Below, piece by piece: positions 1,037 through 31,072 of a stretch of DNA of 33,235 nt (within the stretch, counting starts at the first letter, position 1; each line of letters begins with the position of its first letter). The translations under genes were made by a program, and so were the position numbers. The stretch comes from a virus. Location of the stretch: positions 1-33,235 of the IMG/VR virus record IMGVR_UViG_3300027508_000028, one strand, 5' to 3'. The notes beneath the pieces are model-generated. The model saw only the letters and a list, made by a program, of their open reading frames with translations. It was not told where the DNA came from and ran no database searches.

Positions 1037-1306
1037 ATGAAAAAACTTATTGGTGTAATTCAGAACTTTGGTTTTGGTATTTCGTGCGACGGTAAAAATG
1101 TTGAAGTATTCGGATCTGGTGATACAGCAGAGTCAATCAAAAAACTTATTGATGATCCAGAAAGCAGTTACAGCCAATTCGTAAAGAATGGGACAATGGA
1201 AGATCCAGTTGAATATTGGATTACATCTGCACAGAACTTTGAATACGAGACAATTCCATACTCGCAAGAAAACTTGGACATGATGAAAGCGAAATTTAGC
1301 GAATAA
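1037..1306 (+). CDS. Small conserved-type phage protein, unknown function
   Basis: This 89-aa acidic protein has no recognised domain. Two ATGs compete. The one at 1031 lies only 2 bases after AAGGA (1024-1028); the one at 1037 lies 8 bases after it, a normal Shine-Dalgarno spacing, so 1037 (MKKLIGVI) is preferred. Its TAA stop overlaps the ATG of the next gene (TAATG at 1304-1308), which indicates translational coupling with the large virion-type gene. It has several aromatic residues (FGFG, YWIT, FEYE) and no membrane segment or cysteine cluster. Confidence 0.7.
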   Translation: MKKLIGVIQNFGFGISCDGKNVEVFGSGDTAESIKKLIDDPESSYSQFVKNGTMEDPVEYWITSAQNFEYETIPYSQENLDMMKAKFSE

Positions 1307-4300
1307 TGCTTCAGAATATTGTTGACTTCAAAGCAAAATCTTTTCTTAGTGAACAGAACACGTCCACGATTGCTTACGAAGTTAAGGCTGTTCGCGCCAT
1401 GTGGGATCCAAGCCTTTCTATTCCCGGCACCAACCGTCGTGGTGGCTGGCGATGCCCAACAGGAACACGATACGGTGGACAGATAACAGATCGTTTTGGT
1501 CGGTCTTGTGGTTGGGGCGTAGCGCGACGCATCGCTAACCAAATATCAGACATTGGTCAACGCTTAGAGAATGTTGATGATGCTCGCCGTGGTCGTCGTA
1601 TTGCTCGTCGCGAACGCCGAATACTTGCAAGACTTAATCCTGAAGGCGGTGGCGCTGGTCGTCTTGAGCAAGGTTTGCGTGGTGTCGCAGATAGGTTAGA
1701 CGGCGGAGGAACGCCAAGCCCTCGTGGTGCGCGTAGGAGAACTGTTGTTGCACGACCACCATCAGTTGATACACCTGAAGCACCTAGGGAATTGACACCT
1801 GCACCTCGCCCACAGCGCAGAAGGCGTGCACCAAATGTTAGAGATTCAGAACAACGACGCATGGATCGCGAAATTGAACAGCCCGGTGCGCCACGAACAG
1901 GCGAAGCACCTGCTCGTCCTGCCCGTAGACGTCAACCTGCGAGACCACGGGGTGAAGGAAATCTTCGTGAATCAGAACAACGAAGAATGCAACGCGAAAT
2001 TGAACAGCCGGGCGCACCAAGAACTGGTGAAGCGCCTGCTCGTCGTCGCCGTCGTGCCGTAGTTGAAGCAACAAAGAAACCTAAAGCACCAACACGCCAA
2101 GCAGGAGAGACCGATCCGCTTGCAGTAGCAGAGCGTGATCTTAACGAAGCACGAGACATGTTGCAGATGATGCGACAGAATAGTGCGGCTCCACAGGGAA
2201 TCAGGCGTCAACGAGAAAAAATAGTTAAGTTGGAAGAAGAGGTAAGGCGTCTTCAGCCTCCACGCACAGTTGTTGAACCAAAAGTCGTTAAGCCTCGTCG
2301 CCCTAGGGCAAACCCTGACAGGAACGACATTGGTGCGCTACTTGATGCTGAATCGGAAGAGCGTCGGAACGCCCAACCTAAACGCAGAAAACCACAACCC
2401 GGAAATAGTGACAATGCTGCGCGTTCAGAAGAATTGCGACAAAACCGCGTAGCGATGGAACAGGCTGTGCTTGCCGACGCAAAAAAGAGGCAACGAGAAA
2501 GAGAGATCGGTCAGGAAGTTGATCTAGACGAAATACTTCAGATGAATAAACCACAACGTTTTTCACAGTATATGAATCTTGTGCTAAGAGAACAGCGCCT
2601 CGCCCTAATCAACGACTCTGAAAACTATCCAAGTGGTCGCGAAAGGCTTCAGGCTAAATCAAGAGAAGCAAGATCACGAATCAGAGATGTAGATGCACGG
2701 TTGGAAAAAATAGAAAACGCAATTGATGATAAAAAACTTTCCCTCAATGACTACATAAATGTTGGCAACGAGCGGTTGACAATATCTGATTTGAAGATGC
2801 GCATGTTTGATCACCGCGAAGGTTGGCAAGAAGTTCTTGACCAAGTCGGTTCTGGTTCTCCACCATTCAGCACATTCGCTCCTGAGCCTCTTGGTGTTCC
2901 TCTTCTAGAGAATGATGCTTTTGACAATTTTGTACGAGGTTGGATTCCCGCGATAGGAGATGATCTAGATGCCGAAGAACGAGAGGTGATGAGAGCACAG
3001 TGGGACGCTGAAGAAGAACCAATTAATGATGTCAGAAGATTCTTTAGGCGCAGGATTCTTGATGGAGATTTTGGCGAGCCCGAAGATCTGAGAGAACGAA
3101 TTGCTGTTAACTTGCAGGAAATTCGTGAGGCTCAAAGCCGAATGGACGGCGATGTTGAACTGATTCAAGATGGCGCCGCAACTGGTCAAAGAAGAGCAGA
3201 TGCATTAAATAGGATTGTTGTTAATGCTCAGGATAGGCGACGACGCGTTCTTGAAAACGAATTCTTTGAACAAGCATTACAAAATGTTGCATCTGAATCC
3301 TCACCGAAACCTAAAACCAAACCAAAAACACCTTCAACCCCAACTCCAATCCCAACACCAACACCTACTCCTACTGGTGATGCGAGCGCTCCCAAAAAGC
3401 CCAACGGAGCCGATAGAGCCCCAACAGAAATAGCATACAAGCCCCTAGAATTCAAACCCGCTTTTGAACCAGACAAGAATCGCGAAATTGAAGAAAAACT
3501 TCTAGCAATCAATAACGCTCCCGAACTAGCGGCAATGATTGCAGAACTTGACAAGTTGAAATTTAATCATGGTGCCGAGCAACAGGGACGACTCAATGAT
3601 CATCACGATGCTTTGGATAAAGCACTTAACGCTATCGCTGGTGGCAAATCGGTAGACGAGGCAATAGAGGATTATCTTGACGATCAGGACGGAACTGTTC
3701 AGGCAAACGTAAAGATCGCAAATAGACAAGCACGCTATGACGAAGAGTGGAGGCTTTTTCAACAAACTGGTAGCAATATCAGACAGTTGGATCAAGCAAA
3801 CAAACTCTTAGTTAGAGAAAAAGTTTCGCTTGAACTTCGTAAAAGATTTGAAAAAGATCTCAAGAGTGCGCTAGCCCGAAAAGAACAAGGTTTTGTTATT
3901 AACGAAAATGATTCCAATTTAGGGAAGATAACACCTGACGCTGTCAAAGCAAAGATTGAAGCCGACATAGATAAAGCAATATCTAAACGGGGTAAAAAGT
4001 TAGAGAAATATCTTGATGAACGATATCCCGCAGGTGGTCCTCAACCGAAGTTTAAAGGTATGACGCCAGCAAAATGGGCTTCGCTTAGCGCATCCGAGAA
4101 GGAGTCATATATCAGGGAAGCATATTCCCATCCTGTCATTAAAGGTGCTAATGGAAAGTTGTACAAAGTATCAGTAACTTCCTATTCCGTTGATAATGGA
4201 AAAATTAACCTACAGACATCTTTTGATGAGATTGACGCTAACGGAAGGGTCTTGCGGTTCGGAATTGCTGTTTCTTCTAGAACGATTTACCCCGGAGATG

Positions 4301-4785
4301 CCAAGAAGGTTTATCAAAACTCATTTTTCATCCGATCCGATGTGGACAAAGCGGCAGATCTTGCAACAATCTACAATCAGACAGCATTCACCTATCTCAA
4401 AGCAATTGGAATACAAACTGCTGAAGTCGGTCCTGCTGAGGACGGGAAATATGTTTGGGCACGAGTTGGTTTCAAAGAGAGACTTGGCGGAATGAATAGC
4501 ACTCATTACCAAAGGTTTGAAGAAGCATTGAAGTTTTACAAAAACTTTGGTCCGGGTGGATTGATTTCTTCAGACGAGCAATACATTCGTGTCAAGAAAT
4601 TTATTGAGTCTGGACGGGCAGGACGCAAATATAGCCATCAAGATGCAATATTCTTGATTGATGATGGCAACATCGCAGACAAAGCAAGACGAGAATATAT
4701 TAAGCACTGGTTCGTGGGTAATGCACCTTTGAGTGGTGCAGTTCTGAGTTTTGGCGAACAAAAAATTGGCGCACGGGTACGCTAG
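1306..4785 (+). CDS. Giant Arg-rich virion-type protein with GNAT-like C-terminal domain
   Basis: This 1159-aa protein has a modular layout. Residues 45-72 form a Gly/Arg/Cys segment (GGWRCPTGTRYGG, then DRFGRSCGWG). Residues about 90-260 are very Arg-rich and disordered and hold two copies of a 42-residue unit from residues 180 and 222. Long charged helices follow, then a Pro/Thr/Lys linker at about 666-691. The C-terminal domain (about 920-1159) contains YVWARVGF at 1049-1056, a form I associate with GNAT-like folds in phage and plasmid proteins. It starts by TAATG overlap with the previous gene and lies 5' of the capsid gene, so a head-associated or injected protein is likely. Acetyltransferase activity is not shown. 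The length and linker suggest several independent domains. Confidence 0.6.
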   Translation: MLQNIVDFKAKSFLSEQNTSTIAYEVKAVRAMWDPSLSIPGTNRRGGWRCPTGTRYGGQITDRFGRSCGWGVARRIANQISDIGQRLENVDDARRGRRIARRERRILARLNPEGGGAGRLEQGLRGVADRLDGGGTPSPRGARRRTVVARPPSVDTPEAPRELTPAPRPQRRRRAPNVRDSEQRRMDREIEQPGAPRTGEAPARPARRRQPARPRGEGNLRESEQRRMQREIEQPGAPRTGEAPARRRRRAVVEATKKPKAPTRQAGETDPLAVAERDLNEARDMLQMMRQNSAAPQGIRRQREKIVKLEEEVRRLQPPRTVVEPKVVKPRRPRANPDRNDIGALLDAESEERRNAQPKRRKPQPGNSDNAARSEELRQNRVAMEQAVLADAKKRQREREIGQEVDLDEILQMNKPQRFSQYMNLVLREQRLALINDSENYPSGRERLQAKSREARSRIRDVDARLEKIENAIDDKKLSLNDYINVGNERLTISDLKMRMFDHREGWQEVLDQVGSGSPPFSTFAPEPLGVPLLENDAFDNFVRGWIPAIGDDLDAEEREVMRAQWDAEEEPINDVRRFFRRRILDGDFGEPEDLRERIAVNLQEIREAQSRMDGDVELIQDGAATGQRRADALNRIVVNAQDRRRRVLENEFFEQALQNVASESSPKPKTKPKTPSTPTPIPTPTPTPTGDASAPKKPNGADRAPTEIAYKPLEFKPAFEPDKNREIEEKLLAINNAPELAAMIAELDKLKFNHGAEQQGRLNDHHDALDKALNAIAGGKSVDEAIEDYLDDQDGTVQANVKIANRQARYDEEWRLFQQTGSNIRQLDQANKLLVREKVSLELRKRFEKDLKSALARKEQGFVINENDSNLGKITPDAVKAKIEADIDKAISKRGKKLEKYLDERYPAGGPQPKFKGMTPAKWASLSASEKESYIREAYSHPVIKGANGKLYKVSVTSYSVDNGKINLQTSFDEIDANGRVLRFGIAVSSRTIYPGDAKKVYQNSFFIRSDVDKAADLATIYNQTAFTYLKAIGIQTAEVGPAEDGKYVWARVGFKERLGGMNSTHYQRFEEALKFYKNFGPGGLISSDEQYIRVKKFIESGRAGRKYSHQDAIFLIDDGNIADKARREYIKHWFVGNAPLSGAVLSFGEQKIGARVR
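1843..2046 (+). repeat. Tandem 126-bp (42-aa) repeat within the Arg-rich gene
   Basis: Two direct copies start at 1843 and 1969. Both encode [DE]SEQRRM[DQ]REIEQPGAP followed by RTGEAPAR. Synonymous differences between copies (for example cccggtgcg versus ccgggcgca) show selection on the peptide rather than a recent duplication. The second copy runs directly into a poly-Arg stretch. Confidence 0.85.
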
Positions 4786-4795
4786 GGATAATTTT

Positions 4796-5053
4796 ATGAA
4801 ACTAACCAACGAACAAAAATCTGTTATCAGAGATGAATTATTCAGAAACATAAAGAACGATGAAACACGCTCAAAAATAATTTCAACCGCTTTCGGTTTC
4901 GCTCACGAAAATGGTGAAGATGGTGACATTGAAAAAATGGTTAGTTATTTGATGAATAACAAAAACAAAATTGATGAACTTTTTATGGAATTTGGTATGT
5001 CTATGCCATACTCATCTGAGACGAAACCTGAAAAGAAAAAAACCAAAAAGTAA
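4796..5053 (+). CDS. Small helical protein, unknown function
   Basis: This 85-aa protein begins MKLTNEQKSV and ends in a Lys-rich tail (KPEKKKTKK). A longer frame opens at TTG 4751 inside the upstream gene. ATG 4796 is preferred because AGGGA at 4784-4788 sits 7 bases upstream. The stop TAA overlaps the next ATG (TAATG, 5051-5055), so it is coupled to the ART-domain gene. The sequence is acidic-amphipathic with no recognised motif. Confidence 0.7.
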   Translation: MKLTNEQKSVIRDELFRNIKNDETRSKIISTAFGFAHENGEDGDIEKMVSYLMNNKNKIDELFMEFGMSMPYSSETKPEKKKTKK

Positions 5054-7260
5054 TGTCAGAAAATAAAGAAAAAACCACTAGAGATCAAGCGCTTCGTGTT
5101 GCCCGCATGCTTGGATGTCAGGGCGCTCATGAGACCGATACTGGCTGGATGCCTTGCGCCTCACACGAAGAATATGAGGGTATCAAAAAGGGTAAAGAAG
5201 AGTATCTGAAAGTTCGTGCTTCAAATAACAAAAAACCTTTGCCAAAAATGGTTCAACGCACCAAGCGTTTAGAAACAAAGTCTGATGCATATTACGAGAA
5301 TCGTGCTGATGCTGTTGCTATTTCTAAGGCTCGTGGTTGTGGTGGTGTGCGAACTGTCATGCTTGCAGGGAAAAAGTATTATGCGATTTGCAACCATAAG
5401 GCACCTAAACGGGGTTGGGAGAACCTTGACGAGAAACCTATTACTGGTATTGCTACTTTGCCGGGTGGCGGGCTTGTAACTGGCTCGTTTTCTGGTAAGT
5501 CTTTAGGTCGTCCTATTGGTGGTGTATCTGATTTTGATGGTGATGGTGACGGGTTCTCTACTGGTCCTGACGGAGAAGATAATATTCCTGTACCCAAAAT
5601 ACCTAAAAAAATGTTTCATGGAAGCACAGTGAAGTTGAATGTTGGGGACTACTTACTCCCACCTTCGGAAACTGGAGTTAAGCCACGAGCACATCCCGAC
5701 ATTGACGCAAATGAGTTCAACAACACAAACTACGTCTACCTAACTTCAAAACTTGAAGATGCTCGTGGTTATGGATCGGATGTCGTGAAACCCGGACAGA
5801 AGATATACATCTACGAAGTTGAACCATCTGACGATGTTGAAGAAGATCCAGAGAATGAAATTTTTGGGGTAGAAGGCGGATTTCGTTCTCGTAAAGCAAA
5901 AATAAAAAAGATAGTAGCGACTCTTACGAGTAATTCTGATGGGTCAATGGACGAAAAGGGTTTCGTCAACTTTGTTAGCCGTTCCACAGATCCTGATACT
6001 TTCAGCGATCCTGATTCTGCTCGTATCCGTTCAAGGAATCTTGGCTGTATCGGTATTCGCCGTTATACGGCACGGGATGGGAAACTTGTTTGGCTTCCAT
6101 GTTCCAATGTGTCCGACTACAACCGTGTCACAGGTATCCGAGGGGATAACAGCCCGAGGAATAATCCTCGCCGTCAGGGTTCGGGTTTCAAAAAGAAATC
6201 AGAAACAGAGGAAAAAGCACTTGGTCGTTCAATCGGTGGATATAGAAGAATGTTCAAACCGATCGGTGGGGTAGGCGCTCTTGAAGATGGAGACGGAGAC
6301 GGTTTTGCTACTGGTGCAGATGGCGAAGATAATATTCCTGTAGCAAAAGTGCCAAAACCTAAAAACAAAAAACCAGCGCCCAAGAAAAAAGTACCAAAGA
6401 AAAGGTTAACACCACAACAACAGCGCGAACGAACCAGATGGGAAAACCAACTTCGGCGAGACGAACTTGCTAAAAGGAAACGAGAGATTGAATTTGAGAT
6501 AGAGCGTCGTAAACCAGATGTCCCTCGTCTCCCACCGGGCATGGTCAGCATTGAAAAAGCCCGAGAAGTTAAAAAACATTGGGATGACCTTGTTGACAAT
6601 CTTTTTGAACAAGCAGAATGGGGCAACGACGAAAAGGCTCAGGAAAAGAAAAAACGGAAGTTGTTGGCTCAGGCTTATGTTGCCACGGCGCGCAAGTTTA
6701 AACTTTCTCCCAAGCAAGTACAGCAACACATGAACGAAGTTGGTAGAAGAGTGTACGACGATTTGCCATGGGTTTGGCGTCCAGAAGATCTACCAGTAAG
6801 AGACATCATGCTAGTACGAGGTGCAAAACCATCACAAAAAGATGCGCTAAGCGATGGCATCATTTCCTTCAAAGGTGTCCCTAAGCCAAAGAAAAAACCG
6901 CCGACTGTGACAAGCACAGACATCAACAACCTTGCTGTCATGGTACGCAAGAACAACGCTAAAGCAAAAACTTCTGCCAAAACCAACCTCCGTGACCTCA
7001 AGGTGGTATTCGTCAGAGGGCTGTCCGACGGAGGACGAGAAGAAGCAAATAATCGGGTCTCAAAGTTCCTATCGTTGCTGAACTCCGACAAACCTAAAGA
7101 TGTAAAGTATTCAGAAGATAATGATCTTTTGCCTATTGACCACCCATGGAAAAGCCGTAAAACAGCCAAGAAATGGGCTGATTTTGAAGAAGGCGAATAC
7201 GGTGTCAAATACGCTGGCGGATGCTGTCCAAAGGTAGTTAAAAGATACCGTCCCAAATAG
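5053..7260 (+). CDS. Multidomain virion-type protein with Arr-like ADP-ribosyltransferase domain
   Basis: This 735-aa protein has several modules. Three Cys-pair repeats (LGCQG...WMPC near 20-35; RGCGG...YYAIC near 95-113; LGCIG...WLPC near 330-353) alternate with two acidic loops, DFDGDGDG at 160-167 and EDGDGDG at 411-417. Each loop is followed by DGEDNIP and resembles a calcium-binding dockerin/EF-hand loop. Residues about 187-288 resemble rifampin ADP-ribosyltransferase (Arr): MFHGS with H189, YVYLTS with Y229, IYIYEVEPSDDVEEDPE with an acidic cluster near D265, then FRSRKAKIKKIV. Arr uses a His-Tyr-Asp triad, and all three positions have candidates here. The rest is a Lys/Pro-rich linker and a basic C-terminus ending GGCCPKVVKRYRPK. 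It lies directly upstream of the capsid gene, so packaging and injection like T4 Alt is an attractive inference. Rifampin resistance itself is not implied. Confidence 0.65.
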   Translation: MSENKEKTTRDQALRVARMLGCQGAHETDTGWMPCASHEEYEGIKKGKEEYLKVRASNNKKPLPKMVQRTKRLETKSDAYYENRADAVAISKARGCGGVRTVMLAGKKYYAICNHKAPKRGWENLDEKPITGIATLPGGGLVTGSFSGKSLGRPIGGVSDFDGDGDGFSTGPDGEDNIPVPKIPKKMFHGSTVKLNVGDYLLPPSETGVKPRAHPDIDANEFNNTNYVYLTSKLEDARGYGSDVVKPGQKIYIYEVEPSDDVEEDPENEIFGVEGGFRSRKAKIKKIVATLTSNSDGSMDEKGFVNFVSRSTDPDTFSDPDSARIRSRNLGCIGIRRYTARDGKLVWLPCSNVSDYNRVTGIRGDNSPRNNPRRQGSGFKKKSETEEKALGRSIGGYRRMFKPIGGVGALEDGDGDGFATGADGEDNIPVAKVPKPKNKKPAPKKKVPKKRLTPQQQRERTRWENQLRRDELAKRKREIEFEIERRKPDVPRLPPGMVSIEKAREVKKHWDDLVDNLFEQAEWGNDEKAQEKKKRKLLAQAYVATARKFKLSPKQVQQHMNEVGRRVYDDLPWVWRPEDLPVRDIMLVRGAKPSQKDALSDGIISFKGVPKPKKKPPTVTSTDINNLAVMVRKNNAKAKTSAKTNLRDLKVVFVRGLSDGGREEANNRVSKFLSLLNSDKPKDVKYSEDNDLLPIDHPWKSRKTAKKWADFEEGEYGVKYAGGCCPKVVKRYRPK

Positions 7261-7327: not shown

Positions 7328-7412
7328 TAACTGGACTAGGTGCTTACCGAAGTCTGCAATAAAGAAACATAAGTAATCACCAACCAAATCCAATTCACTA
7401 GGAGTGAACAAC

Positions 7413-8729
7413 ATGTCATTTGACAACAGCCGTTTAACTGAACTTCAAGGTGCAATGCGCACCAAGATGGCAGAAAACAAGACAATCGCCGACAACTTCA
7501 AAATTGAAGACGGCACCGTAGTCGTATCCGCAGAACAAAAGACCGCGTTTGACAAGAACATGGCAGACATCCGCGAGATCAAGTCGCTCGTTGAGAGCCT
7601 TGAGTCAATGCGCGATGCTGACAAGTGGGCTTCAGAGCCACAGGATTCAGTAGCACAGGCTTCGGCTTTCGCTTCACAAGAAATCCAGCATGTAGTTCAG
7701 TCAATGGGTCGCAAGAGCATTGGTGAGGCATTCCTTGCTTCAGCAGAGTTCAAGTCCCTTTTGCAGAGCGGTTCGGCAAACATGCCAGCACCATACAAGT
7801 CGGGTAGCGAAGTGTACAGTCAGAAAGACTTGTACTCGGCACTCCCAACTGGTACACCTGGCTCGTTCGGAACCATCCAACGCGATGCAATGGTTATTCC
7901 TCCAATGCGTACCAAGCGTGTTCGTGACTTGTTCCCAAGTCGCACCACGACTGCTGCGATCATTGAATACTTCCGCATGACGGGATTCACCAACAACGCA
8001 GCAGCAGTTGCTGAGCGTTCGGGTTCCGCATTCGGCGCCAAGCCACAGTCGTCTTTCACCTTCGTTGGTGAGCAGGCTCCTGTTCGCACCTTGGCTCACT
8101 GGGAAGCCGCACACCGCAATGTTCTTGCTGATGAGCCACAACTACGCTCAATCATTGACAACGAGTTGATGTACGGTCTTCGCTTGCAGGAAGATGCACA
8201 AATCCTTAACGGTTCAGGAACTGGCGAAAACCTTACGGGTATCTTGAATACCCCGGGCGTACAGACCTACGACTGGTCGGATGGCGTGTACTCAGCAACT
8301 GCTGGTATGAGCGACACCAAGGCTGACGCAATCCGTCGTGCCGCAACCCTTTCCTTCTTGGCTTACTACGAGCCATCGGGTATCGTTCTTAACCCGAACG
8401 ATTGGGAAGACATTGAACTCAGCAAGGACGGCAACGGCGCTTATGTCGTAGCAGTTTCTGTTGCAATGGGTGGCGAGCAGAAGTTGTGGAGGATCCCAGT
8501 TGTGGACACCCCTGCAATTGCTGAAGGCACTGCACTTATCGGCGCATTCGGTACAGGAGCACAAATCTACGACCGTGAGTCACCAAGCATTCGCATTAGC
8601 GAACAGCATGCAGACTTCTTCGTGCGTAACGCAATTGTGATTCTTGCTGAACAGCGTTTGGCTCTTGCAGTCAAGCGTCCAGAGTCGTTCGTCAAGGTAT
8701 CTTTTGACGGCGCACCAGCAGCACCGTAA
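7413..8729 (+). CDS. HK97-fold major capsid protein
   Basis: This 438-aa protein is the main head subunit. The first about 75 residues are a charged helical segment (RLTELQGAMRTKMAENKT onward) like the HK97 delta/scaffolding domain, normally removed by the prohead protease. The core carries family features: GTIQRDAMVIPPM, ATTAAIIEYFR-type strands, a Phe-rich FTFVGEQAPVRTLAHWEAAHR segment, DNELMYGLRLQEDAQILNGSG, GILNTPGV, and near the end LAEQRLALAVKRPESFVKV. GTG 7404 is in frame but lies on the GGAG ribosome-binding site (7401-7404); ATG 7413, 8 bases downstream, is the start. GC-ending codons are more frequent than in neighbours, as expected for a highly expressed gene. A terminator follows. 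No separate protease gene is seen, so it should lie upstream of the window. Confidence 0.95.
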   Translation: MSFDNSRLTELQGAMRTKMAENKTIADNFKIEDGTVVVSAEQKTAFDKNMADIREIKSLVESLESMRDADKWASEPQDSVAQASAFASQEIQHVVQSMGRKSIGEAFLASAEFKSLLQSGSANMPAPYKSGSEVYSQKDLYSALPTGTPGSFGTIQRDAMVIPPMRTKRVRDLFPSRTTTAAIIEYFRMTGFTNNAAAVAERSGSAFGAKPQSSFTFVGEQAPVRTLAHWEAAHRNVLADEPQLRSIIDNELMYGLRLQEDAQILNGSGTGENLTGILNTPGVQTYDWSDGVYSATAGMSDTKADAIRRAATLSFLAYYEPSGIVLNPNDWEDIELSKDGNGAYVVAVSVAMGGEQKLWRIPVVDTPAIAEGTALIGAFGTGAQIYDRESPSIRISEQHADFFVRNAIVILAEQRLALAVKRPESFVKVSFDGAPAAP

Positions 8730-8810: not shown

Positions 8811-9572
8811 ATGAAATTCACTGATTTGATTAACGGTCAACCAATCTCTATTCGTGTCAAAGCGGAAGAATCTTGCCCTAAAGCGACACAGGACATTGCG
8901 GTAAACCTTGCTAACAGAGGCAAAGCAATCAAGACAGCGATGTATGGTCCGCTTAATCCTTCTGAACCAAACACAGAGTACTGGGGCAAGTTGGCAAAAG
9001 AGTGGGATGTTGATAATGCTTCTGCGAAAAAACAGTTGTGCGGAAACTGTTCACTTTTCATTCAAACACCTTCAATGAAAGACTGCATCAACAAAGGTGT
9101 AACTGGTGGCGATCGTCAAGATGAGTGGGAAGCAATTGATAGTGCTGGCGAACTTGGATATTGCGAAGCATTTGATTTTAAGTGTGCATCAAAGAGGACT
9201 TGTCGTGCATGGGTTGCGGGTGGTCCGATCGTTAAGGAGAAGTCTGCCAAACCGTTGCGTGATCCAAAGGGTGGTTTAACCGCCGCTGGCAGGGAACACT
9301 TCAACAGAACAGAAGGATCAAACCTCAAACCCGGTGTCAAAGGAAGAGCCGACACACCAGACAAGATGCGTCGCAAAGGATCATTTCTTACACGGTTCTT
9401 CACCAATCCTTCTGGTCCTATGAAAGACGAAAAGGGTCGCCCAACACGACTCGCTCTTTCAGCGGCTGCTTGGGGTGAACCAGTCCCACAGAATGCAGAT
9501 GATGCTAGGGAATTAGCCTCCAAGGGCAAAAGAATGCTTGAACGATACAAGAACTCCAAAGACAAGGATTGA
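8811..9572 (+). CDS. Cys-rich phage protein with DUF6321-like C-terminal region
   Basis: This 253-aa protein has two parts. The N-terminal half has a cysteine cluster: CGNCSLF near 76-82, then C in SMKDCINKG, then GYCEAFDFKCASKRTCRAW, about seven cysteines able to hold zinc or an Fe-S centre. The C-terminal half (GGLTAAGREHFNRTEGSNLKPGVKG onward, ending RPTRLALSAAAWGEPVP) matches from memory a conserved phage domain named DUF6321. Function is unknown. It is monocistronic or starts a two-gene unit with the nuclease, whose start overlaps this stop region. The short distance from a GATAAT hexamer suggests near-leaderless expression. Confidence 0.75.
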   Translation: MKFTDLINGQPISIRVKAEESCPKATQDIAVNLANRGKAIKTAMYGPLNPSEPNTEYWGKLAKEWDVDNASAKKQLCGNCSLFIQTPSMKDCINKGVTGGDRQDEWEAIDSAGELGYCEAFDFKCASKRTCRAWVAGGPIVKEKSAKPLRDPKGGLTAAGREHFNRTEGSNLKPGVKGRADTPDKMRRKGSFLTRFFTNPSGPMKDEKGRPTRLALSAAAWGEPVPQNADDARELASKGKRMLERYKNSKDKD

Positions 9573-17256: not shown

Positions 17257-18633
17257 TTACCCCTCAGAAGCAACCTCAAAAAGCGTGAGTTGGCTTTCTT
17301 CAATCTCACGGGCAATTCTCAACTTCTCTTTTTCGGCAGATAGACGCTCAGTCGCAATCTGCGCATATTCGGGGTTCAACTCACAGCCCAAATATGATCT
17401 ACCCAACTTTTGTGCCACCACGCCAGTAGTGCCAGCACCAAAAAACACATCAAGCACTGTGCAGGGCACTGTTTCAGCGGTTTCGCATTTGCAAGCCTTT
17501 TCCCACCCGATTGTGTCGGTTTGGGAATAACCTGCGTCTCCCTTGCCATTTATTTCCCCATATGCGCCTTCGTAGTTGTTTGGACGGTAACGAGGATCGT
17601 TCACTGGAAGTTCGTTTCGGGCTATTCTCTTGCGATTCACTTGACGGACCATCGGTGACCCACATTGAGCACAACATCCCATTTCGCTCGTACCAGCGGA
17701 GATGCAAGGCTCTATCAGATCCTGCGGGAAGGTCGCGAAGTGCGCTCCCTTGAATGGTTTCGTTGTCACAGTCCATACAGACCTCTTGTTCCTAAAGGCT
17801 CCAGTTGAGCCATGCATTGCGTTAGAAATACCTGCATCTTTACGGCTGTCTGCACGAGACCCCCTGTCGTCGTAAGCATATTTTGCTGGTTCTTTTATTG
17901 CTTCACTGTCAAAGAAATAATGTGACTTCTTCGTCAACAGAAACATGTACTCATGCGCTTTGGTGCACCTATCGCGAACAGATTCGGGCATCGGATTCGG
18001 TTTAGCCCAAATAATGTCTTGACGCAAATACCAGCCGTCTGCTTGCAAAGCAAAGGCAACACGCCAAGGAACACCAACTAAATCTTTAGGTTTGAGATCG
18101 CCGTCATCGCGACCTATTTTGGCTCTGAAATCTTCGTTCTCCCCACCAGCGTTAGAAGCATTAGTAGAAGCGATTGACTGCTTCCACCCATTCCCGTTGC
18201 TACCTGCATAAGAGTCGCCGAGGTTCAACCAGAGCGTTCCGTCTTCTCGTAAAACTCTGCGAACTTCACGGAACACTTCCACCATATGTTCTACATATTC
18301 GTCAACGGTTGGCTCTAAACCAAGTTGGCTATCCTTGCGCATCGCTCCGCAACGAGGGCATTGGACTTTATAAATGCCGTCACCGATAGCGCCTTCAAGA
18401 AGTTTCTGTCCAGTTGAGCAACTCTCACTGAACTTACTATCCCGTTTATGAGAGCATTCAGGATCGCCACCAATCCAAGTGGCAGTTCCATAATCCCTTA
18501 GACCCCAATACGGTGGTGAGGTGACAACGCAGTGAATACTGTTATCCGCCAAAGACGCAAGAGTTTCCCGTACATCACCAAGGAGAATGTTTGAATCAAT
18601 AACAAATGGCAGCACTGTTTCTTCGTTTGTCAT
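17257..18633 (-). CDS. Beta-class DNA methyltransferase (N4-cytosine or N6-adenine)
   Basis: This 458-aa enzyme has TSPPYWGLRDYG (catalytic motif IV, residues 38-49) before VLDVFFGAGTTG (SAM-binding FxGxG motif I, near 405), the beta-class order. GVPWRVAFALQADGWYLRQDIIWAKPNPMPESV is typical of the family. The central insert includes CPRCGAMR and CCAQCGSPM Cys-pairs, which may form a zinc site in the target-recognition part. The SPPYW form is common in N4-cytosine enzymes, but N6-adenine cannot be excluded. GAGGGG lies 4-5 bases before ATG 18633; the longer frame to 18693 is rejected. No nuclease is adjacent, so it is an orphan that may protect phage DNA from restriction. Confidence 0.9.
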   Translation of the reverse strand: MTNEETVLPFVIDSNILLGDVRETLASLADNSIHCVVTSPPYWGLRDYGTATWIGGDPECSHKRDSKFSESCSTGQKLLEGAIGDGIYKVQCPRCGAMRKDSQLGLEPTVDEYVEHMVEVFREVRRVLREDGTLWLNLGDSYAGSNGNGWKQSIASTNASNAGGENEDFRAKIGRDDGDLKPKDLVGVPWRVAFALQADGWYLRQDIIWAKPNPMPESVRDRCTKAHEYMFLLTKKSHYFFDSEAIKEPAKYAYDDRGSRADSRKDAGISNAMHGSTGAFRNKRSVWTVTTKPFKGAHFATFPQDLIEPCISAGTSEMGCCAQCGSPMVRQVNRKRIARNELPVNDPRYRPNNYEGAYGEINGKGDAGYSQTDTIGWEKACKCETAETVPCTVLDVFFGAGTTGVVAQKLGRSYLGCELNPEYAQIATERLSAEKEKLRIAREIEESQLTLFEVASEG

Positions 18634-18646
18634 TTTTCCCCTCGTA

Positions 18647-18663
18647 AACCCCTCATTGGGGTT
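18647..18663. other. Short hairpin upstream of the methyltransferase ribosome-binding site
   Basis: AACCCC (18647-18652), loop TCATT, GGGGTT (18658-18663) lies between the H1-like gene stop and the methyltransferase start on the minus strand. No T-run follows in that direction. It could attenuate expression or stabilise the transcript. Confidence 0.4.
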
Positions 18664-18667
18664 AAGA

Positions 18668-18985
18668 CTACTTGCTAATCTTGAACCACGCAAGCATTTT
18701 CTTGCGAAGAGGCAAAGATTTCACATCATTAACTCTGATGACGGCAGTCTGTTCAGCCATGACCTTCATGAACTTTTCGGCATTTGCGAATTGTTCTTTC
18801 GTTTCACCGACTTTTGCCAACAAATAAGGATCCTTAGCAGCGACAAGTCCCTTAGTTTTCAGTCCAGATGCCTCTTTGGCAGGAGCCTTTTTAGCAGGAG
18901 TCTTCTTTGTAGGAGTCTTCTTTGCAGACGCCTTCTTGACGGGAGCCTTCTTTTTATTGGATTTTTTTGGTTGTTTTGATGTCAT
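18668..18985 (-). CDS. Histone-H1-like Lys/Ala/Pro-rich nucleoid-type protein
   Basis: This 105-aa protein begins MTSKQPKKSNKKK and has a run of [AP]-[KV]-K-[AT]-[SP]-type units (residues about 10-38) matching the low-complexity tails of histone H1 and actinobacterial HU-like proteins. The C-terminal half (DPYLLAKVGETKEQFANAEKFM, then PLRKKMLAWFKISK) is a compact helical region with basic ends. DNA coating or packaging, or modulation of host chromatin, is the likely role. The frame extends to 19033, but ATG 18985 is chosen because a TAGTGT -10 lies 7 bases upstream. Lysine-rich tails are acetylation targets, notable with the deacetylase-family gene in the same genome. Confidence 0.75.
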   Translation of the reverse strand: MTSKQPKKSNKKKAPVKKASAKKTPTKKTPAKKAPAKEASGLKTKGLVAAKDPYLLAKVGETKEQFANAEKFMKVMAEQTAVIRVNDVKSLPLRKKMLAWFKISK

Positions 18986-29806: not shown

Positions 29807-30342
29807 ACCATATCGGGATAATCTCACCCGGCAAAATGGGTCGCACACTTGCGCTTACCCTCAACGCCAACGGAAACAAGACATATTTTGCTAGCCGAAG
29901 CAGAAAACCCGAAACAGTTACACTCGCAAAACAAGCAGGAATAATAGAACTGCCATCTATCAAAAACCTTGTACAAGAATGCGACACAATCATTTGCATC
30001 GGGACACAAGGAATCGCATTCAACACAGCATCACAAGTAGTGCTCGCACAACCATACGACGGTCTATACATAGACTTCAACTCCCTACACACCCCACAAG
30101 AAGAAAAAGATTGGCGTTTCCTAATGGAAATGTCCAACAGCCGATATGTAGAAGGTGCTTTACAGGGCTACCCGTTTGACATACTGCCAAAAACATCAGA
30201 CACCCACCTAATGATCCTCTCAGGTGAACATGCAGATGAAGCAGAAAAACTATTTGCCAACACAATATGGTATATAGAAAAAACTAAACGAAACGCAAAA
30301 ACGGTCAACAGAGAACCGTTCCAACAGTCCCACGATGGATAA
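29803..30342 (+). CDS. Rossmann-fold dehydrogenase fragment (6-phosphogluconate / 3-hydroxyisobutyrate dehydrogenase type)
   Basis: This 179-aa protein begins MNHIGIISPGKMGRTLALTL, the GxGxMG-type dinucleotide motif with the first glycine pattern altered (GIISPGKMG), followed by FASRSRKPETVTLAKQAG and DTIICIGTQG. The all-helical C-terminal domain needed for dimerisation and catalysis in full-length members (about 290 aa) is absent. It may be an NAD(P)-binding partner of the SDRs or a single-domain enzyme. ATG 29803 overlaps the upstream stop (ATGA). The C-terminus EPFQQSHDG carries the recurrent QQ[ST]xxx end described under the repeat entries. Confidence 0.7.
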   Translation: MNHIGIISPGKMGRTLALTLNANGNKTYFASRSRKPETVTLAKQAGIIELPSIKNLVQECDTIICIGTQGIAFNTASQVVLAQPYDGLYIDFNSLHTPQEEKDWRFLMEMSNSRYVEGALQGYPFDILPKTSDTHLMILSGEHADEAEKLFANTIWYIEKTKRNAKTVNREPFQQSHDG

Positions 30343-30359
30343 ACTTAAACGCGTGGAGA
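30321..30359 (+). repeat. Stop-to-start repeat element, copy 1
   Basis: AACAGTCCC (30323-30331), 6 bases, GATAAAC (30338-30344), followed by TTAAACGCGTGGAGACC. The stop codon TAA (30340-30342) lies in GATAAAC. An in-frame GTG (30353) of the methyltransferase sits where the next start lies in copies 2 and 3. Confidence 0.7.
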
Positions 30360-31072
30360 CCAACTTTATAAAATGTGGGGACGCCCTACAAGAACTCAAA
30401 ACAATTCCCGACAACACAATAAACACCGTCATCACATCACCGCCATACAACAAAAAAGGTATCCAAAACGGCAAAACACAAAACAGCAACCAAATCTGGC
30501 AAAAACACAATATTGACTACAACGAATACCACGACAACATGCCAGAAAACGAATACCAAAACTGGATAATAGAAATCATCAACGAACTACACCGTGTAAT
30601 CACACCAGACGGATCCATCTTTTTTAACCACAAACCACGCCGACACAACAACCAAGCACGGCTACCCACAGAATTCATTCACAAAACAAACGCACACATA
30701 TATCAACTGATCATATGGAACCGCAAAAACAGCCCGAACATACGCAAAGACCACCTGCTACCAAACACCGAACACATCTACTGGCTATCCAAAGACAAGC
30801 CGAAAACATTCCGTGACAACATAGACACCAAATATCTTGGCGAAATATGGGACATATCACCACAACGGCAAACAATCCACCCCGCACCATTCCCAACACA
30901 ACTAGTAGAAAACTGCATCCTCCTCACCACACAACCCGACGACATCGTCCTAGACCCCTTCAATGGGATAGGGACAACCACAAAAACAGCCCAAAAACTA
31001 GGCAGAAAATATATCGGATACGATATAGACGAAAAATATGTGGAGATAGCAAAACAGTCCCCTGCTAGATAA
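30335..31072 (+). CDS. Beta-class DNA methyltransferase (second of the window)
   Basis: This protein is 245 aa from ATG 30335 or 239 aa from GTG 30353 (VETNFIKCG). TSPPYNKKG (motif IV, 34-42 from the ATG) precedes VLDPFNGIGTTTKTA (SAM motif I, near 205), the beta-class order for N4-cytosine or N6-adenine. DAL near the N-terminus and GRKYIGYDIDEKYVEIA at the end are canonical. It is smaller than the other methyltransferase and lacks the cysteine insert. It stands 11 bases upstream of a PD-(D/E)XK-like gene, so it may be half of a restriction-modification pair. Third codon positions are mostly A or C. Confidence 0.9.
   Translation: MDKLKRVETNFIKCGDALQELKTIPDNTINTVITSPPYNKKGIQNGKTQNSNQIWQKHNIDYNEYHDNMPENEYQNWIIEIINELHRVITPDGSIFFNHKPRRHNNQARLPTEFIHKTNAHIYQLIIWNRKNSPNIRKDHLLPNTEHIYWLSKDKPKTFRDNIDTKYLGEIWDISPQRQTIHPAPFPTQLVENCILLTTQPDDIVLDPFNGIGTTTKTAQKLGRKYIGYDIDEKYVEIAKQSPAR

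What the first reader, a model, noticed from the sequence alone, without database searches (positions are those of the whole stretch)
5611..5916. Arr-like ADP-ribosyltransferase domain inside a capsid-adjacent repeat protein
Residues about 187-288 follow the Arr (rifampin ADP-ribosyltransferase) order: FHGS with H189, VYLTS with Y229, YIYEVEPSDD...EDPE with an acidic cluster near D265, then the basic FRSRKAK strand. It is embedded between Cys-pair repeats and DxDGDG loops in a 735-aa gene immediately before the capsid gene. T4 Alt is the established precedent for an ADP-ribosyltransferase packaged in a phage head. An Arr-type fold in that role would be, to my knowledge, undescribed.
Basis: partly seen in the sequence, partly recalled or inferred. 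Interest (0 to 1): 0.72.

Follow-up and report, generated by a model that had tools for sequence, protein, structure and literature searches.

The report
Swappable Arr-like enzyme in phage head protein
A bacterial virus carries, inside a protein made next to its capsid protein, an enzyme module related to the one that inactivates the antibiotic rifampin, and sister viruses carry different modules in exactly the same slot, so this looks like an interchangeable payload probably shipped into the host with the viral DNA.

Summary
Residues 187-288 of the 735-aa ORF (5053-7257, +) are a genuine Arr-type ADP-ribosyltransferase (ART) domain. Pfam Arr-ms scores 26.8 bits (cut-off 25). A profile built from bacterial Arrs alone gives 31 bits, against at most 6 for 1000 shuffles. 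The predicted fold best matches Arr crystal structures. H189, Y229 and D265 coincide with the three residues Arr needs for activity. It is not a rifampin-Arr equivalog (22-28 bits against a 130-bit cut-off).

The larger finding is the architecture. In relatives, the gene before the capsid gene is a conserved frame (M1-M2-M3) with two insertion sites. Arr sits in site A. Sister phages carry zincin-like sequences, an HDVLGH domain or a different, ART-like domain there; others are empty. All 15 large inserts begin with one EF-hand-like leader (DGDGDGxxTGxxGxDNIP); none of 44 short junctions has it. The leader also occurs in prohead-protease polypeptides, and M3 resembles the N-terminus of a protease-capsid fusion.

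Most likely this is a virion-loaded polyvalent-type effector with swappable cassettes. Packaging, injection and target are inferred, not shown. T4 Alt, MuF toxins and polyvalent proteins are precedents: a new variant of a known kind.

The parts
5053..7260 (+). 735-aa frame protein, the gene immediately before the capsid gene; its ATG overlaps the stop of the preceding 100-aa ORF 4751-5053
   Evidence: conserved position in relatives
5053..5505 (+). Module M1 (aa 1-151): DUF3721 (aa 9-38) and Cys-pair motifs
   Evidence: PF12518 E 3.3e-13; 77-95% identical in the closest relatives
5506..5604 (+). Leader A (aa 152-184) GRPIGGVSDFDGDGDGFSTGPDGEDNIPVPKIPK: EF-hand-like DxDxDG loop that begins the site A insert
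5605..5949 (+). Site A payload (aa 185-299): Arr-type ADP-ribosyltransferase domain, core 5611-5922
5617..5619 (+). Codon of H189 (equivalent to Arr H18 in PMC3138739 numbering)
   Evidence: alignment; mutant data in PMC3138739
5737..5739 (+). Codon of Y229 (equivalent to Arr Y48)
5845..5847 (+). Codon of D265 (equivalent to Arr D83)
5950..6189 (+). Module M2 (aa 300-379): EKGFVNFVSRSTDPD...LGCIGIRRY...WLPC Cys-pair module
   Evidence: 81-95% identical in close relatives
6253..6348 (+). Leader B (aa 401-432) FKPIGGVGALEDGDGDGFATGADGEDNIPVAK, in the site B insert
6190..6855 (+). Site B insert (aa 380-601): leader B plus a helical, basic payload of unknown function, 51-54% identical to L006 and L010 site B
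6856..7257 (+). Module M3 (aa 602-735): homologous to a prohead domain (N-terminal part of the Roseobacter phage CRP-821 S78 protease-capsid fusion; DUF5824-related)
7404..8729 (+). Major capsid protein, HK97 type
   Evidence: PF05065 E 3.5e-45, phrog_10 E 1.1e-65
8811..9572 (+). DUF6321 protein after the capsid gene; in other phages this domain is fused to the S78 protease together with the leader
   Evidence: PF19846 E 3.6e-30

Best explanation
The segment is an active-looking Arr-type mono-ADP-ribosyltransferase carried as an exchangeable payload in a head-morphogenesis-associated frame protein. The frame (M1-M2-M3) is made with the capsid and probably co-assembles inside the procapsid. Payloads enter at site A (between M1 and M2) or site B (between M2 and M3), each introduced by an EF-hand-like leader. 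I infer that the protein is loaded in the head, possibly processed by the prohead protease, and ejected with the DNA, and that the ART then ADP-ribosylates a host macromolecule early in infection; RNA polymerase is the first candidate, since mycobacterial Arr co-precipitates its beta subunit. Shown here: domain identity, catalytic residues, purifying selection, cassette exchange at a fixed site, and sequence links of leader and M3 to prohead proteins. Inferred: packaging, processing, injection, activity and target.
For: Arr identity: Pfam above cut-off; bacterial-only HMM 31 bits vs at most 6 for shuffles; AF2 with Arr alignment pLDDT 76.5, pTM 0.74; Foldseek best hit 2hw2 Arr E 8e-6; VIA Z 10 for Arr entries. 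H189/Y229/D265 invariant in all 56 aligned sequences; their Arr counterparts H18, Y48, D83 each abolish activity when mutated (PMC3138739). dN/dS 0.067. Cassette logic: L007 has no insert, with M1 and M2 adjacent, while flanking modules are 90-95% identical to the window; other site A payloads are L014 and L019 (HExxH, zincin-like), L012 (HDVLGH) and L015; L006 and L013 carry another ART-like domain at the same site. Leader in 15/15 inserts of at least 125 aa and 0/44 shorter junctions. Head link: leader fused to S78 protease + DUF6321 polypeptides; M3 homologous to the N-terminus of a protease-capsid fusion, 66 bits vs below 2 for shuffles. Arr co-precipitates RNAP beta (PMC3138739).
Against: No virion proteome, activity assay or cultured member exists. 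The Arr cassette is known in only three contigs, two nearly identical. The AF2 alignment was made of Arrs, which biases the model towards Arr; without an alignment the model is poor (pLDDT 41). 36 of 55 near-invariant Arr columns are changed, so the substrate cannot be transferred from rifampin Arr. The second ART-like family rests on sub-threshold ART-PolyVal scores (14-18 bits, cut-off 31.2) and on motifs.
Confidence: 0.6

Rival explanations
1. An antibiotic-type Arr: it detoxifies a rifamycin-like or other small molecule in the infected cell, and its place in a head-operon protein is only a way of being expressed late or delivered.
For: Arr is the nearest family. Stand-alone phage Arrs of Gordonia, Microbacterium and Sinorhizobium phages have been read this way (PMC9503650). 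L091 shows a full rifampin-type Arr in a viral contig (207 bits).
Against: Far below the equivalog cut-off (22-28 vs 130 bits); conserved Arr segments SNYG and NLTDKKFPGNPT are absent. Neighbours at the same site are protease-like and other ART-like domains rather than resistance enzymes.
Confidence: 0.1
2. The ART works inside the infected cell at the end of infection on phage or host proteins during head assembly, for example modifying capsid or protease, and is not injected.
For: Gene lies directly before the capsid gene and probably is expressed with it. M3 and leader occur in prohead proteins.
Against: Close relatives with 92-98% identical capsids lack any Arr and have unrelated payloads or none at that site, so assembly does not need it.
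Confidence: 0.15
3. Frame proteins are scaffold or decoration proteins that tolerate inserts; the inserts, Arr included, are inert passengers or only binding domains.
For: Payloads vary widely between relatives and can be absent. Mycobacterial Arr also has non-catalytic effects and binds RNAP and L11 (PMC3138739).
Against: All three catalytic residues kept and dN/dS 0.067 in the Arr segment. Payloads are mostly recognisable or motif-bearing enzymes such as zincin-like, zeta-toxin kinase and ParB-like domains.
Confidence: 0.1
4. The segment belongs to the already described polyvalent-protein ART family (ART-PolyVal / Tox-ART-HYD2), which also has an H-Y-D active site, rather than to the Arr family.
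For: Polyvalent ARTs have H, Y and D in equivalent strands (PMC5512222); the protein has a polyvalent-like make-up.
Against: No PF18760 match in the window even at E 10, whereas Arr-ms passes its cut-off and Arr structures head the fold searches.
Confidence: 0.05

Closest known systems
Arr, NAD+:rifampin ADP-ribosyltransferase (PF12120; 2HW2, 9IAF, 9IBA)
   Same: Sequence family, predicted fold and the H-Y-D catalytic residues.
   Different: Embedded in a 735-aa head-operon protein instead of a stand-alone ~140-aa enzyme; about 25-30% identical; longer loop before the VYLT strand; lacks the NLTDKKFPGNPT segment; fails the NCBIfam equivalog cut-off.
Polyvalent proteins of phages and conjugative elements (Iyer et al. 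2017, PMC5512222)
   Same: Large multidomain proteins near virion genes mixing ART, zincin-like, ParB, GNAT and other effector domains, predicted to be packaged and injected.
   Different: Here a small conserved frame with two fixed slots and a repeated EF-hand-like leader before each payload; the ART is of Arr type, and 'rifampin' does not occur in that paper.
MuF polymorphic toxins of phages (PMC5576092)
   Same: Head-associated conserved carrier with variable toxin domains, some of them ARTs.
   Different: Carrier is not a MuF protein; payloads are internal cassettes between frame modules, not a C-terminal extension; no immunity gene was sought here.
T4 Alt (and ModA/ModB)
   Same: An ART proposed to be carried by the virion and to act early on the host.
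   Different: Different ART family; Alt is a dedicated packaged enzyme shown to be injected, here that is inferred.
Phage-borne Arr-family ARTs (Microbacterium, Gordonia, Sinorhizobium phages; PMC9503650)
   Same: Arr-family ART in phage genomes, partly of actinobacterial hosts.
   Different: Reported as modifiers of small molecules; no cassette in a capsid-adjacent frame protein is described there.

Membership tests
Pfam PF12120 Arr-ms | Score above the curated gathering cut-off (25 bits) | tested here: met
   26.8 bits full protein, 32.1 bits segment
Pfam PF12120 Arr-ms | Catalytic His, Tyr, Asp in order | tested here: met
   H189, Y229, D265 invariant with 54 other Arrs and L005; Arr mutants H18A/Y48A/D83A inactive (PMC3138739)
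Pfam PF12120 Arr-ms | Arr/ART fold | tested here: met
   AF2 model pLDDT 76.5; Foldseek 2hw2 E 8e-6; VIA Z 10.0, 10.0, 9.7 for three Arr entries; the model alignment consisted of Arrs
Rifampin Arr equivalog (NCBIfam NF033144) | Score above the 130-bit equivalog cut-off | tested here: not met
   22.3 bits protein, 27.6 bits segment
Rifampin Arr equivalog (NCBIfam NF033144) | ADP-ribosylates rifamycins | not testable with these tools
   needs an enzyme assay
ART-PolyVal (PF18760) | Match to the family profile | tested here: not met
   no match in the window at E 10
Polyvalent proteins (Iyer 2017) | Several disparate effector domains in one polypeptide | tested here: inconclusive
   one recognised enzyme domain in the window protein; relatives combine two payloads (L012: HDVLGH plus ParB-like, phrog_3170 and phrog_1033; L083: Zeta_toxin plus HEWFH)
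Polyvalent proteins (Iyer 2017) | Encoded among virion genes | tested here: met
   directly before the capsid gene here and in relatives
Polyvalent proteins (Iyer 2017) | Packaged and injected | not testable with these tools
   contextual only
MuF polymorphic toxins | MuF domain in the carrier | tested here: inconclusive
   no MuF family among Pfam matches to the protein at E 1; HMMER may miss remote members
T4 Alt family | Alt-type ART sequence family | tested here: inconclusive
   no Alt-type match among Pfam or PHROG matches of the protein; Alt itself was not compared directly

The most novel reading that the evidence does not exclude
The EF-hand-like leader (LGxPIGG...DGDGDGxxTGxxGxDNIPxP) is a portable virion-loading or processing tag: a short Ca2+-binding adaptor by which a family of probably actinobacterial phages loads arbitrary effector enzymes, including an Arr-type ART, into the procapsid through one frame protein with two plug-in sites and through other leader-bearing proteins.
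Probability: 0.35. Interest if true: 0.8.

Novelty: new variant of a known kind. Interest (0 to 1): 0.58.

Why it matters
If right, an enzyme family known mainly for antibiotic resistance also serves as a phage payload, and its native target in bacteria, an open question for Arr (no endogenous ADP-ribosylation target known in mycobacteria as of PMC3138739), becomes approachable: compare what different payloads at one site do to the same kind of host. The frame-leader-payload layout makes effector domains recognisable in phages of uncultured bacteria by position alone, and suggests a simple rule for loading proteins into a phage head.

Tried and rejected
Single-sequence AF2 gave a useless model, pLDDT 41. 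tblastn of the full protein and of the Arr segment against isolate phages and plasmids found no convincing relative; the weak Dhakavirus hit (E 2-3) is a 105-aa gene beside dmd with a sub-threshold Arr-ms score (15.1 bits), kept only as a note. Profile scans of viral contigs for more Arr cassettes found only the two known carriers and one stand-alone Arr; an Arr HMM over all fetched viral loci found no further cassette, and PF12120 over 80 capsid-related records found two. I rejected the idea that this gene is itself the maturation protease: no S78 match was found in it, and in relatives S78 lies about 20 kb upstream. A first count of leaders was wrong because of a bad regular expression; it was redone. 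Profile-profile comparison of the sister ART-like family with Arr gave no similarity, and a search of solved structures found no relative for it. Literature searches for DUF3721, and for Arr with capsid, gave nothing on this arrangement.

Full report
What was checked. The ORF 5053-7260 (+) encodes 735 aa and ends 143 bp before a major capsid gene of HK97 type.

Is it Arr? Pfam-A returns Arr-ms for residues 188-267 above the curated cut-off, and the two Arr sequences in the PDB are the top phmmer hits for the segment at E 0.01. PHROG phrog_17296, an unnamed family, matches the same region at E 2e-8 and also matches bona fide Arr proteins. An HMM made only from bacterial Arrs collected from GTDB genomes scores the segment 31.3 bits; the best of 1000 shuffles scores 6.1. 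With an alignment of these Arrs AlphaFold2 gives a fair model (pLDDT 76.5, pTM 0.74). Its best match in the PDB is Arr (2hw2, Foldseek E 8e-6; VIA Z 10.0, 10.0 and 9.7 for 9iaf, 9iba and 2hw2), followed by other members of the ART superfamily. Arr rows in the alignment favour Arr, so the sequence tests carry more weight. In BFVD the nearest models are uncharacterised phage proteins, one inside a 714-aa protein.

Catalytic state and specificity. H189, Y229 and D265 are invariant across 56 sequences. Their counterparts in M. smegmatis Arr, H18, Y48 and D83, each abolish rifampin modification when mutated (PMC3138739). Of 55 columns at least 90% conserved in Arrs, the window keeps 19, including the catalytic three, and loses 36, among them the SNYG and NLTDKKFPGNPT segments. 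It scores 22-28 bits against the NCBIfam rifampin_ARR equivalog, cut-off 130. So it is an Arr-family ART, but there is no basis for calling it a rifampin-resistance enzyme. Between the two distinct carriers (window and L005) dN/dS is 0.067 in the Arr segment, similar to the frame modules.

The frame. A scan with the capsid protein fetched 80 related viral contigs. The gene directly before the capsid gene ranges from about 207 to 2557 aa. Taking L007 (379 aa, no insert) as reference gives three modules: M1 (DUF3721 and Cys pairs), M2 (Cys pair) and M3. In the window M1 is 90%, M2 95% and M3 77% identical to L007, with 148 aa inserted at site A between M1 and M2 and 222 aa at site B between M2 and M3. 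Site A holds the Arr domain here, an HEWSH zincin-like sequence in L014, an HEFAH one in L019, an HDVLGH domain (phrog_3170) in L012, and an unidentified domain in L015; it is empty in L007 and nearly empty in L010, L017, L018 and L021. After the leader the payloads show no similarity to each other.

A second ART-like family at the same site. In L006 (capsid 98% identical) and L013 (92%) M1 and the leader are followed by a domain with YRG...GNGIYF/GNGIHF motifs; there the ORF stops and M2-M3 start as a separate overlapping gene. Its family (16 loci) matches ART-PolyVal in 7 of 13 records, always below the cut-off (14-18 bits versus 31.2), and hhalign finds no similarity to Arr. I take it as probably ART-like, not established. 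If right, two different ART families occupy one slot in sister phages.

The leader. Every insert of at least 125 aa (15 of 15; 6 at site A, 9 at site B, not all independent) carries LGxPIGG...DGDGDG...DN/DK-IP near its start; none of 44 shorter junctions does. The DxDxDGxxxxxD spacing is that of EF-hand-type calcium loops (established knowledge; binding not tested). A degenerate pattern for the leader found 42 stretches in viral contigs. It precedes zincin-like, ParB-like and GNAT-like domains in other genes and also sits in polypeptides that begin with a prohead S78 protease and DUF6321. In the window DUF6321 is in the gene after the capsid gene.

Link to the head. M3 is homologous to residues 115-217 of a 974-aa Roseobacter phage CRP-821 protein whose later parts are S78 protease and capsid (66 bits; shuffles below 2). 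A related lake phage assembled from a metagenome, DSL-LC01, has an M3-containing gene close to the portal gene (PMC10611076). In G009 the order is a probable portal gene, S78 protease, about 15 kb of large modular proteins, the frame gene, capsid. The closest isolates by capsid, Gordonia phages GMA6 and Gray (about 46-47%), have the maturation protease directly before the capsid gene. The host is probably an actinobacterium, inferred from these similarities only.

Mechanism. Best supported: a head-associated carrier protein with plug-in effectors, of which this one is an Arr-type ART acting on the host early in infection. Steps shown by sequence: domain identity, intact active site, selection, exchange at a fixed site, leader rule, homology of parts to prohead proteins. 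Steps inferred: loading, processing, injection, activity, target. RNA polymerase is a reasonable first target because mycobacterial Arr co-precipitates its beta subunit independently of catalysis (PMC3138739) and T4 Alt modifies RNA polymerase.

Novelty. Head-packaged ARTs are known for T4 Alt and proposed for MuF fusions and polyvalent proteins (PMC5512222, PMC9503650, PMC5576092). Arr-family ARTs in phages are known too, read as small-molecule modifiers (PMC9503650). New here, as far as the searchable literature shows, are the Arr-type payload in a capsid-adjacent protein and the frame-leader-cassette arrangement. That is a new variant of a known kind.

Noticed in passing
window 1306-4785; L207 (G009:C1:57500-76500); L006:1807-4953: Several large proteins between protease and capsid share an N-terminal motif WDPSLSIPGTNRRGGWRCPxGTRYGGQITDRFGRSCGW, and their C-termini carry a GNAT-like YVWARVGF segment; possibly a second carrier type.
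   Followed up: no
L073:13723-14871: A leader-bearing protein with a segment (YRAMELP...PLMATATEARQGTNNFLAKYGQDILLKI) that looks like an R-S-E type ART by eye; no Pfam support.
   Followed up: partly
L158:571-885 (Escherichia phage Bp7, Dhakavirus): 105-aa protein (phrog_2110) between gp41 and dmd scores sub-threshold for Arr-ms; PMC9503650 describes an ART toxin paired with Dmd in enterophages, possibly the same gene.
   Followed up: partly
L091:7938-8381: A full stand-alone rifampin-type Arr (207 bits, above the equivalog cut-off) in a high-GC viral contig, between a portal-like gene and a TROVE-like gene.
   Followed up: partly
L101 around 4001-4207 (Thermacetogenium MAG): 403-aa protein starting like a nicotinamidase/isochorismatase (CLIVVDYQNDF) and ending in Arr; a nicotinamide-consuming partner for an ART would make sense.
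   Followed up: no
L094, L096, L104, L144, L145: Bacterial proteins of about 245-310 aa with two Arr copies in tandem.
   Followed up: no
L037:15390-17162: One protein with two leaders, each followed by a different domain (ParB-like, then GNAT-like); the ParB-like domain recurs as the site B payload in L012, suggesting leader-payload units move between genes.
   Followed up: partly
L015:2299-5106 and L211:16059-17459: The L015 payload resembles a DSL-LC01 portal-adjacent protein matching DUF3626 (conserved YxEAQIxGGVxLxDxxYxA).
   Followed up: no
window 17257-18693 (-) and 30335-31072 (+): Two ORFs match the same DNA methyltransferase PHROG (phrog_67).
   Followed up: no
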